Origin: Chitinolyticbacter meiyuanensis
GTDB lineage: Bacteria; Pseudomonadota; Gammaproteobacteria; Burkholderiales; Chitinibacteraceae
NCBI RefSeq assembly: GCF_008033135.1
Contig: NZ_CP041335.1
Span: 3,725,925 to 3,789,924, forward strand
Direction of reading: 5' to 3'
Length of the DNA stretch: 64,000 bases
Below the pieces are notes generated by a model. The model worked only from the letters and a program-made list of their open reading frames with translations. It made no database searches and was not told where the DNA came from. Each line of letters opens with the position of its first letter. The stretch's first letter is position 1. Made by a program: the position numbers and the translations under genes. Shown here piece by piece: positions 9,248-31,438 of the stretch.

Positions 9248-9323
9248 TGGTGCCGGCGGCAGGAATCGAACTCGCGACCCCCTGATTACAAGTCAGGTGC
9301 TCTACCAACTGAGCTACACCGGC
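9248..9323 (-). tRNA. tRNA-Thr (anticodon UGU)
   Basis: A 76-nt cloverleaf on the minus strand. The acceptor stem GCCGGUG pairs with CGCCGGC with one G-U, the discriminator is A and CCA is encoded. The D-arm AGCUCAGUUGGUAGAGCA, the anticodon arm CCUGA-CUUGUAA-UCAGG and the T-loop GUUCGAUUC are all regular. It decodes ACA. The prophage lies against its 3' end, the usual side for tRNA-targeted integration, so attR may overlap the tRNA 3' half. No second att copy is in view. Confidence 0.97.
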
Positions 9324-22314: not shown

Positions 22315-26021
<3,707 letters not shown>

Positions 26022-26112
26022 ACCACGGGCTCCTGCCCGAGGGGCAGGCCCGACTACGGACCGGCGGCGACAGCACCGCCGGCCGCTTCGACGAGGGAGC
26101 TAGGAGAGGAAC

Positions 26113-27387
26113 ATGGAAACCCAACTGATCGACAAGGCCACGCTGGCGCGCCAACTGCCCAACAAGGCGGTGGCGCTGGTGCTGGCCGGTGGGCGCGGTT
26201 CGCGGCTGAAGGCATTGACCGACCACAGGGCCAAGCCGGCCGTGTACTTCGGCGGCAAGTTCCGCATCATCGATTTCGCACTGTCCAATTGCCTGAACTC
26301 GGGCATCCGCCGCATCGGCGTGGTCACACAGTACAAGTCGCACTCGCTATTGCGCCACCTGCAGCGCGGCTGGGCCTTCCTGCGTTCCGACATGAACGAG
26401 TTCGTCGACCTGCTGCCTGCGCAGCAGCGCGTGGACGAGGAACACTGGTACCGCGGCACCGCCGACGCCGTGTACCAGAACATGGATATCATCCGCAGCT
26501 ACCGCCCCGAGTACGTGGTGATCCTGGCCGGGGACCACATCTACAAGATGGATTACGCCCGGATGCTGGTCGATCACGTGCTGCAGCAGGCCAACTGCAC
26601 CGTGGCCTGCATCGAAGTACCGGTCGAGGAAGCCACCGCCTTCGGCGTGATGGCCGTGGACGAAACCCGCAAGATCACCGCCTTCGTCGAAAAGCCGGCC
26701 AACCCGCCCGCCATGCCGGGCAAGCCCGATACCGCGCTCGCGTCAATGGGCGTCTACGTGTTCAACGCCGAGTACCTGTATCGGTTGCTCGACGAGGATC
26801 TGGCCGATCCGGAATCCGATCACGATTTCGGCAAGAACATCATCCCCAAGGCCGTGACCGAAGGCAGCGCGCTGGCGCACCCGTTCTCGCTGTCGTGCGT
26901 GAAGAGCGATGTGGACGGCAAGGAATACTGGCGCGACGTCGGCACCGTCGATGCCTATTGGGCCGCCAACCTCGACCTCGCCTCGGTTACGCCGGAGCTC
27001 GATGTCTACGATGAGACCTGGCCGATCCGCACCTACCAGGAACAACTGCCGCCGGCCAAGTTCGTGCAGGATCACAATGGCAGCCACGGCATGACGCTGA
27101 ACTCGCTGGTGTCCGGCGGCAGCATTGTCTCCGGCTCGCTCGTCATCAATTCGGTACTGTTCTCGCGTGTGCGCGTGCACTCGTTCTGCACCATCGATTC
27201 CTCGGTGATCCTGCCCGAGGTGACGGTGGGCCGGAATTGCCGGCTACGCCGCTGCGTGATCGACCGCGGCTGCCAGTTGCCCGACGGCACCGTGATCGGC
27301 GAGAACGCCGAGGAAGACAAGCGCCGTTTCCACCGCTCCGACAACGGCGTGGTGCTGGTCACCAAGGACATGCTGGCCAAGCTGTGA
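26113..27387 (+). CDS. glgC: Glucose-1-phosphate adenylyltransferase
   Basis: Encodes 424 residues, with GGAGAGGA before the ATG. Nucleotidyltransferase signature [25 protein letters not shown]-glucose pyrophosphorylase motif [23 protein letters not shown] and [15 protein letters not shown]-terminal left-handed beta-helix domain carries allosteric contacts. It makes ADP-glucose, the first committed step of glycogen synthesis. Confidence 0.97.
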
Positions 27388-27399
27388 ACGCCCGTGGTC

Positions 27400-27434
27400 G
27401 GTGGAGCTCCTGACTTGCAATCAGGTGCTCCACC
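27400..27434. other. tRNA anticodon-arm-like hairpin between glgC and glgA
   Basis: Arms GGTGGAGC and GCTCCACC (8 bp), a T/T mismatch, then CCTGA / TCAGG (5 bp) close a seven-base loop CTTGCAA. The inner arm and loop match the tRNA-Thr anticodon arm at 9248-9323 except for one loop base. The following GGATCGAATTC resembles a T-loop. It lacks acceptor and D-arm structure, so it is not a tRNA gene. It is in the leader of glgA and has no U-tract, so a processing or attenuation role is possible. Confidence 0.6.
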
Positions 27435-27464
27435 GCCAGGATCGAATTCAAGGAATACACACGG

Positions 27465-28952
27465 ATGTCGCGAAAGCCCGCCAAGATTGACGCCCCTACC
27501 GCCAGCGAGCCCCCTGCCATGCGCGTATTGCACGTCTGCTCCGAGCTGTTTCCCCTCCTCAAGACTGGCGGCCTCGCCGACGTCACCGGGGCGCTACCGC
27601 CCAAGCTGATCGAGCTGGGGATCGATGTGCGCGTGCTGGTGCCGGGCTTTCCCGCGATCAAGGCGGGGCTCGCCGAGGAAGGCGACGTGACCCACCTTGA
27701 TACGCCGTTCGGCCCGGTGCGGCTGTGGTTTGGCCGGCTGGGTGCAGTCGGCATCTACGTGATCGACGCGCCGGAGCTGTATGACCGGCCCGGCAATCCC
27801 TACGAGGACGCGGCCAAGCAACCCTATGGCGACAATCATCGCCGCTTCGCGTTGCTCGCCTGGGTCGCCGCCGAACTCGCCAGCGGACTCGATGGCTTCT
27901 GGCAACCCGAGGTGGTGCACGGCCACGACTGGCATGCCGGGTTGACCCCAGCCTATATCGCCGCGCGTGGCCATCCGGCCAAGACGGTGTTCACCGTGCA
28001 CAACCTCGCCTACCAAGGCATCTTCGGGCCGCGCGAGTTCGCCGAGCTCGCTCTGCCCGGCCACTTCTTCGACGTGAACGGCATCGAATTCAACGGCGAT
28101 GTGTCGTTCATGAAGGCCGGCCTGTTCTACGCCGACCACGTGACGACGGTGTCGCCCACCTATGCCCGCGAGATCACCACGCCGGAGCAGGGTTGCGGCC
28201 TGCAGGGCCTGCTGCAAAGCCGCGGTGCCAGCCTGACGGGTATCCTCAACGGCGTGGATGAAGCGGTGTGGGATCCGGCGCACGACGCGCTGATCGCCAC
28301 CGCCTTCACCGCCGAGAAACCCACCGGCAAGGCCAAATGCAAGGCCGCGCTGCAGGCAGACATGGGCCTCACCGTCACCGACGAGGTACCGCTGTTCGCC
28401 GTAGTCAGCCGGCTCACCGAGCAGAAAGGCCTGCACCTGGTGCTGCAGGTCCTGCCGCAGATCGCGGCGGCCGGTGGCCAGTTCGTGCTGCTGGGCAGCG
28501 GCGACCCTGGGCTGGAAGCAGCCTTCCGTACCGCTGCCGAACTGCATCCGGGCCAGGTCGCCATCCATATCGGCTACGACGAGGCGCATTCGCACCGGGT
28601 GATGGCGGGTGCCGACGTGGTGCTGGTGCCCAGCCGTTTCGAGCCCTGCGGCCTCACCCAGCTCTATGGCCTGAAATACGGTGCGCTGCCACTGGTGCGC
28701 CGCGTCGGTGGCCTTGCCGACACCGTCATCGACTGCGCGCTGGAGAACCTTGCGGACGAAAGCGCCACCGGCTTCGTGTTCCAGGATTTCACCGTGGCCG
28801 GCATCGCCGCCGCCACGCGCCGCGCCTTCGCGTTATGGGCGCGCAGCAAGGAATGGAAAGCAGTGCGTCGCCAGGCCATGCGCCGTGACTTCGGCTGGCA
28901 GGCCTCGGCCGCCGCCTATATCGATCTGTATCGCCATCTGCTCGGACGTTGA
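27465..28952 (+). CDS. glgA: Glycogen synthase (ADP-glucose dependent)
   Basis: Encodes 495 residues from ATG 27465, with AAGGA about ten bases upstream. The family's usual start ([12 protein letters not shown]) is 18 codons further in but has no ribosome site. GT5 features: the ADP-glucose site [14 protein letters not shown], and the C-terminal [19 protein letters not shown] loop. It elongates glycogen by alpha-1,4 linkages. The preceding tRNA-like hairpin separates it from glgC. Confidence 0.96.
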
Positions 28953-28987
28953 GTCCGACTCGCCATCCAAGACATGCGGAGAGAACC

Positions 28988-31438
<2,451 letters not shown>

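What the first reader, a model, noticed from the sequence alone, without database searches (positions are those of the whole stretch)
27388..27464. tRNA anticodon-arm mimic between glgC and glgA
The inner stem and loop CCTGA-CTTGCAA-TCAGG match a real tRNA anticodon arm (one base from the tRNA-Thr in this window) and are extended by an 8-bp stem, followed by GGATCGAATTC reminiscent of a T-loop. It could be bound by a tRNA-modifying enzyme or synthetase, be processed by RNase, or be a remnant of a tRNA gene captured in the operon. Being in the leader of glgA, it could tune glycogen synthase.
Basis: seen in the sequence. Interest (0 to 1): 0.6.

Follow-up and report, generated by a model that had tools for sequence, protein, structure and literature searches.

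The report
tRNA-Thr-like hairpin between glgC and glgA
A strong hairpin between two glycogen-making genes copies part of a threonine tRNA; it is probably a species-specific piece of tRNA-derived DNA acting as an ordinary RNA hairpin, not a conserved tRNA mimic that controls glycogen synthesis.

Summary
The 77-bp glgC-glgA spacer carries a 14-bp hairpin (27399-27435) whose inner arm differs by one base from the tRNA-Thr(UGU) anticodon arm. The likeness is wider than reported: 28 of 34 bases, D-loop to variable loop, more than random sequence or random hairpins gave. The T-loop likeness is not significant. The regulatory reading fails: the only congener held has an unrelated hairpin there, the other family spacers lack the arm, and the loop (UGC) has lost a bacterial threonine identity base, U36. 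The remnant idea gains support. In 43 family genomes, exact matches to the D-stem/anticodon-arm pattern other than the tRNA-Thr sequence number three, at unrelated places in three genera (here; 181 bp upstream of tRNA-Thr in G006; after a phosphoesterase gene in G029). All three are completed to a palindrome, and none was found in 386 genomes of the order outside the family. Best reading: lineage-specific palindromes derived from tRNA-Thr, perhaps by fold-back template switching; here it sits as a generic intercistronic mRNA hairpin. Chance, and a recombinase site, remain possible.

The parts
26113..27387 (+). glgC (ADP-glucose pyrophosphorylase), 424 aa, stop TGA at 27385
   Evidence: ORF; Pfam NTP_transferase; 96% identical in the congener G001
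27399..27407 (+). 5' arm of the outer stem (CGGTGGAGC); GGTGGAGC corresponds to tRNA-Thr D-loop/D-stem GGTAGAGC
27408..27408 (+). unpaired T (tRNA position 26), opposite T27426
27409..27425 (+). inner stem-loop CCTGA-CTTGCAA-TCAGG, one base from the tRNA-Thr(UGU) anticodon arm; pseudo-anticodon UGC
27427..27435 (+). 3' arm of the outer stem (GCTCCACCG), complementary to the D-arm-like 5' arm; the tRNA has GGTC at GCTC
27439..27449 (+).
27450..27455 (+). probable glgA Shine-Dalgarno AAGGAA, outside the hairpin
   Evidence: sequence; fold
27465..28952 (+). glgA (glycogen synthase), 495 aa
   Evidence: ORF; Pfam Glyco_transf_5
9248..9323 (-). intact tRNA-Thr(UGU), the likely sequence source, 18 kb away on the other strand

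Best explanation
The element is a species-specific palindrome whose 5' half and loop derive from the D-arm/anticodon arm of the tRNA-Thr(UGU) gene, and whose 3' outer arm is the reverse complement of that 5' half. The likeliest origin is a small copying event, such as replication template switching or fold-back synthesis, which makes hairpins in one step. Two further palindromes of the same kind exist in the family. In the glgC-glgA mRNA it most likely works as an ordinary, sequence-independent intercistronic hairpin: it could protect the 3' end of a glgC fragment from exonucleases and slightly uncouple glgA. It is not a conserved tRNA mimic. Shown: the hairpin, its tRNA-Thr likeness, two sister palindromes, non-conservation at this site, hairpins of other sequence at the same place in near relatives. 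Inferred: the copying mechanism, the mRNA role.
For: 28/34 identity to tRNA-Thr, above 10 Mb of random sequence and 20,000 random hairpins at +1/-1. Among 257 distinct hairpins (overlapping registers counted) in 1.57 Mb of held DNA, scores were at most 15 except this element (22) and G006 (29). In 43 family genomes the 22-nt pattern GAGCNCCTGACTTGNNATCAGG gives, besides the tRNA-Thr sequence, three exact matches, and all three carry the palindromic completion NGCTC. The same stem with any loop (0 mismatches) occurs only in those three, each with a tRNA-Thr-like loop. G006: likeness continues beyond the palindrome on the 3' side (P 0.003 whole flank, 0.037 beyond NGCTC), 5' side P 0.019; G029: 5' side P 0.003. 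Hairpins of unrelated sequence follow the glgC stop in the congener G001 and in G003, G013, G015, G024, G004. Template switching is described as a maker of RNA hairpins (PMC8794818, abstract).
Against: With +1/-2 scoring the likeness is reached 5 times in 10 Mb and by 2 of 20,000 random hairpins. The finding was picked from a whole window. For this copy no tRNA likeness extends beyond the hairpin (left P 0.15, right P 0.40). Position 26/44 is mismatched (T/T), which a simple fold-back copy would not leave without a later change. G029's copy lies about 1 Mb from its tRNA-Thr. No closely related strain with an empty site is at hand; the congener's spacer cannot be aligned. Hairpins after glgC are not general: by a strict rule (>=7 contiguous pairs) 4 of 30 spacers against 0.8 expected, this one failing the rule because of its mismatch. 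No expression data.
Confidence: 0.5

Rival explanations
1. Chance: an ordinary intercistronic hairpin whose arm happens to resemble the tRNA-Thr anticodon arm, noticed because a reader scanned the whole window.
For: At +1/-2 scoring such likeness is not rare genome-wide (5 in 10 Mb). Single copy in the genome. Near relatives have hairpins of unrelated sequence in the same spot. No tRNA likeness outside the hairpin here.
Against: 0 of 20,000 random hairpins and 0 of 10 Mb reach the +1/-1 score. Two more palindromes of the same sequence in two other genera, where my rough estimate of chance is well under one; the reversed control pattern gave 0 in 43 genomes.
Confidence: 0.27
2. The palindromes are core sites of a tyrosine recombinase that targets tRNA-Thr: the 7-nt anticodon loop is the overlap and the stems are the two arm sites; the intergenic copies are left-over or secondary attachment sites.
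For: Symmetric arms around a 7-bp centre derived from an anticodon arm, and the G006 copy sits 181 bp from tRNA-Thr in the same orientation. The sites lie where spacers or flanks differ from congeners. Anticodon-loop integration of tRNA-targeting integrases is recalled knowledge, seen only in a search listing.
Against: No integrase in 8 flanking proteins of the two sister sites tested against Pfam. No copy in viral contigs or, for the whole spacer, in phage or plasmid records. The 7-nt centres differ (CTTGCAA, CTTGTAA, CTTGTTA), which a recombinase overlap should not.
Confidence: 0.13
3. RNA-level tRNA mimic: the mRNA arm is bound by threonyl-tRNA synthetase or a tRNA-modifying enzyme and tunes glgA, as the E. 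coli thrS operator does for ThrRS.
For: Inner stem-loop nearly that of tRNA-Thr; the thrS operator is a known precedent (PMC9976931, passages).
Against: Loop UGC instead of UGU loses U36. Not conserved in 29 of 29 other family glgC-glgA spacers. Loop positions 36-37 vary among the three copies. The glgA Shine-Dalgarno is outside the hairpin. No link of glgA to threonine supply known to me.
Confidence: 0.05

Closest known systems
E. coli thrS operator (ThrRS-binding tRNA-Thr anticodon-arm mimic)
   Same: mRNA stem-loop resembling the tRNA-Thr anticodon arm
   Different: thrS lies in the leader of its own synthetase gene and its binding follows Thr anticodon identity; here the loop is UGC, the gene is glgA, and the site is not conserved
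Intercistronic mRNA hairpins that stabilise or shape operon transcripts (recalled; listings)
   Same: strong hairpin just after a stop codon, sequence free to change between relatives
   Different: the sequence here comes from, or resembles, a tRNA gene; no transcript data
Template-switch (quasipalindrome) mutations that create hairpins (PMC8794818, abstract)
   Same: stems with one arm a reverse-complement copy of the other
   Different: here the seed seems to be a displaced tRNA-Thr segment; the event itself was not observed
tRNA-gene attachment sites of tyrosine integrases
   Same: anticodon arm as inverted repeat around 7 bp
   Different: no integrase found at the two sister sites, centres not identical, no downstream tRNA half at this site

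Membership tests
tRNA gene (RF00005) | cloverleaf with acceptor, D, anticodon and T arms | tested here: not met
   ARAGORN and Rfam call only the true tRNA-Thr in the window; no tRNA at the element in L225/L247; T-arm likeness P 0.61 local, 1.0 anchored
Intrinsic terminator | GC-rich stem followed by a T run | tested here: not met
   not listed among terminator-like sites in 26000-29000; followed by CCAGGATCG
Intercistronic mRNA hairpin | stable stem-loop in the spacer of co-directional adjacent genes | tested here: met
   z -4.5 to -5.9; glgC-glgA adjacent and co-directional in 30 of 30 family loci read
Intercistronic mRNA hairpin | co-transcription and measurable effect on transcript ends or decay | not testable with these tools
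   no RNA data held
thrS-operator-like synthetase mimic | Thr identity bases G35 and U36 in the loop | tested here: not met
   loop is CUUGCAA: U34 G35 C36 (determinants from PMC9976931 passages)
thrS-operator-like synthetase mimic | conservation of the mimic at the locus in relatives | tested here: not met
   absent in 29 of 29 other family spacers; no copy at up to 3 mismatches at glgC-glgA among 43 genomes other than this one
Dispersed bacterial repeat (REP-like) | many copies per genome | tested here: not met
   one copy in the genome; one copy each in G006 and G029
Tyrosine-recombinase attachment site on tRNA-Thr | overlap identical to the tRNA anticodon loop | tested here: not met
   CTTGCAA against CTTGTAA
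Tyrosine-recombinase attachment site on tRNA-Thr | integrase gene nearby | tested here: inconclusive
   none among 8 flanking proteins at the two sister sites; the 64-kb window was not scanned gene by gene

The most novel reading that the evidence does not exclude
In Chitinibacteraceae a specific process, fold-back copying or a recombinase, repeatedly turns the tRNA-Thr anticodon arm into free-standing intergenic palindromes, and some of these, as between glgC and glgA, are then used as mRNA hairpins: a route by which tRNA genes seed new RNA structures elsewhere in a genome.
Probability: 0.25. Interest if true: 0.6.

Novelty: new variant of a known kind. Interest (0 to 1): 0.33.

Why it matters
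If the three palindromes are real products of tRNA-Thr, they are small test cases for how new RNA hairpins arise: tRNA genes, already near-palindromic, could seed stem-loops in other transcripts. If not, the case shows that a near-exact anticodon arm in an operon can be a lineage-specific hairpin without a tRNA-like role. Either way it argues against reading regulation into such likeness without conservation.

Tried and rejected
T-loop remnant: rejected for this copy. Terminator: rejected, no T run. glgA promoter in the spacer: no sigma-70-like site in 26000-29000. Mobile repeat in this genome: rejected. Viral copies: none with a tRNA-like loop; two viral contigs carry the stem with another loop, and the same stretch is in both on opposite strands, so this is one unrelated site. 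A recalled link between this palindrome and frequent spurious 'PDCKSG' peptides was dropped as untested. One search read the minus-strand loci in the wrong orientation, so its spacers for those loci are wrong; one search replaces it. The genome contigs pattern demanded the loop CTTGCAA and so could not have seen the UGU-type copies; the second and last scan of that collection went to GlgC relatives. The covariance model was built from the three copies, so their scores above 50 bits are by construction; what it adds is that no fourth copy lies between them and tRNA-Thr (39.3 bits). Apart from 33.5-34.8-bit matches in genus g9 (probably its tRNA-Thr, unchecked) and this element's other strand at 32.5, the rest listed is at 25.5 bits or less; some of these are known tRNAs and most were not checked one by one. 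That list was cut. The list was also cut at its end; by its counts only the G021 match is missing, which one search shows as tRNA-Thr-type. One search also listed one palindrome with one mismatch and an unlike loop in G001 (GAGCCCCTGCTGCGCCATCAGGCGCTC), not followed up.

Full report
What is there. The spacer between glgC (26113-27387) and glgA (27465-28952) is 77 bp. It holds a hairpin with a 9-bp outer stem (27399-27407 with 27427-27435), a T/T mismatch, a 5-bp inner stem and a 7-nt loop CTTGCAA. The fold is far more stable than shuffles. It is not followed by a T run and is not scored as a terminator. Neither ARAGORN nor Rfam sees a tRNA there.

How tRNA-like it is. Against the 44 distinct sequences among the genome's 57 tRNA matches, the best likeness is to tRNA-Thr(UGU): 28 of 34 bases without gaps, from the D-loop to the variable loop. 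At +1/-1 scoring the score of 22 was not reached in 10 Mb of first-order Markov sequence (highest 21) or by any of 20,000 random hairpins of the same geometry (highest 21). At +1/-2 the score of 17 was reached five times in 10 Mb and by two of 20,000 hairpins. So the likeness is unusual for one spacer, but alone it does not exclude chance after a whole-window search. The supposed T-loop downstream is not above chance.

Relatives at the same place. GlgC was found in 58 of 61 genomes searched (weak matches included). Full-length GlgC occurs in 34 of the 37 family genomes in that search (own genome included), and loci were returned for 30, this one included. In all 30, glgA follows in the same direction (two spacers, G006 and G009, hold an extra ORF). 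None of the other 29 has the tRNA-like arm. The only congener held (G001, GlgC 96% identical) has a different hairpin there, GGGCCGCCG with CGGCGGCCC. Compact hairpins of unrelated sequence also follow glgC in G003, G013, G015, G024 and G004. By a strict rule of at least 7 contiguous pairs, 4 of 30 spacers have one against 0.8 expected by shuffling. A hairpin here recurs among the nearest genera; its sequence does not.

The unexpected part. A family-wide search (43 genomes) with the palindrome at up to 3 mismatches found, besides tRNA-Thr-type sequences and the window element, two more palindromes: GAGCCCCTGACTTGTAATCAGGGGCTC in G006, 181 bp upstream of tRNA-Thr in the same orientation, and GAGCCCCTGACTTGTTATCAGGTGCTC in G029, directly after the stop codon of a phosphoesterase gene. 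The reversed control pattern gave 0. Two unbiased follow-ups agree. The stem with any loop occurs without mismatch only at these three places, each with a tRNA-Thr-like loop. The 22-nt D-stem/anticodon-arm pattern without the palindrome requirement has, besides the tRNA-Thr sequence, only these three exact matches, all completed to a palindrome. ARAGORN confirmed tRNA-Thr at 18 of 18 tRNA-type loci given and in L002, L230, L231 and L232; the remaining tRNA-type rows were not checked individually. At two mismatches one search also lists AAGCGCCTGACTTGCCATAAGG in G016 and G064 and GAGCAACTGACTTGTAATCAGT in genus g9 (probably its tRNA-Thr); these were not examined. A covariance model found no fourth copy. 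In 399 genomes sampled from the order, only G000 and G006 matched the exact pattern; 386 of these lie outside the family and none matched. Orthologous phosphoesterase loci of the three congeners of G029 lack the element, and so do the upstream regions of tRNA-Thr in the two congeners of G006.

What it means. In G006 the tRNA likeness runs beyond the palindrome (3' side P 0.003, 5' side P 0.019), as a decayed tandem copy of the tRNA would. G029 shows extra likeness on the 5' side only (P 0.003). The window copy shows it on neither side (left P 0.15, right P 0.40). The tRNA-Thr arm is itself one base short of this palindrome (GGTC in place of GCTC). A copy of the arm completed by fold-back or template-switch synthesis would give what is seen, and template switching is described as a maker of RNA hairpins (PMC8794818, abstract and opening text). 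The 26/44 mismatch in two copies does not fit a simple fold-back unless a later change occurred. tRNA-Thr lies 18 kb from this element and 181 bp from the G006 copy, but about 1 Mb from the G029 copy, so closeness is suggestive only; the 18-kb linkage of tRNA-Thr and glg is also seen in G001, G003, G013 and G022.

Function. A synthetase mimic is unlikely: the loop has C36 where bacterial Thr identity lists U36 (PMC9976931, passages), the loops of the three copies differ at positions 36-37, and the site is not conserved. The Shine-Dalgarno AAGGAA of glgA is outside the hairpin in the predicted fold, so direct blocking of glgA translation is not suggested. The most likely role is that of a generic intercistronic hairpin. 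This is inference; no RNA data were available.

Literature. Searches for glgC-glgA spacer hairpins (3 listed, none on this by title), tRNA-derived palindromes (none; 2, not on this by title), ThrRS mimics, integrase sites in anticodon loops, quasipalindromes, intercistronic stem-loops and Chitinibacteraceae glycogen (1, unrelated by title) listed nothing that describes this element by title or abstract start. Only the held open library was searched.

Noticed in passing
L003:1478-1560 and L004:1500-1563 (G000:C1:3279448 and 3331704): The 3' part of a tRNA-Ser(CGA) is duplicated 52 kb from the intact gene, as the two ends of an integrated genomic island would be.
   Followed up: no
L223:1385-1420 (G003): The likely terminator of tRNA-Thr in G003 has arms (ATCAGGGGGTCA) that repeat the tRNA's own anticodon 3' arm and variable loop; the other family loci read use other terminator sequences.
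   Followed up: partly
L231:3050-3083 (G006:C2:73549): Palindromic, decayed-looking tRNA-Thr copy 181 bp upstream of the intact tRNA-Thr.
   Followed up: yes
L229:3490-3524 (G029:C1:776991-777023): tRNA-Thr-arm palindrome directly after a 752-aa phosphoesterase gene; the gene's C-terminus and downstream neighbours differ from three congeners.
   Followed up: partly
L012, L023: In G006 and G009 an extra ORF lies between glgC and glgA.
   Followed up: no
L034 spacer after glgC (G025): A long imperfect inverted repeat (CCACGGAGGGCACAGAG...) fills the glgC-glgA spacer of one relative.
   Followed up: no
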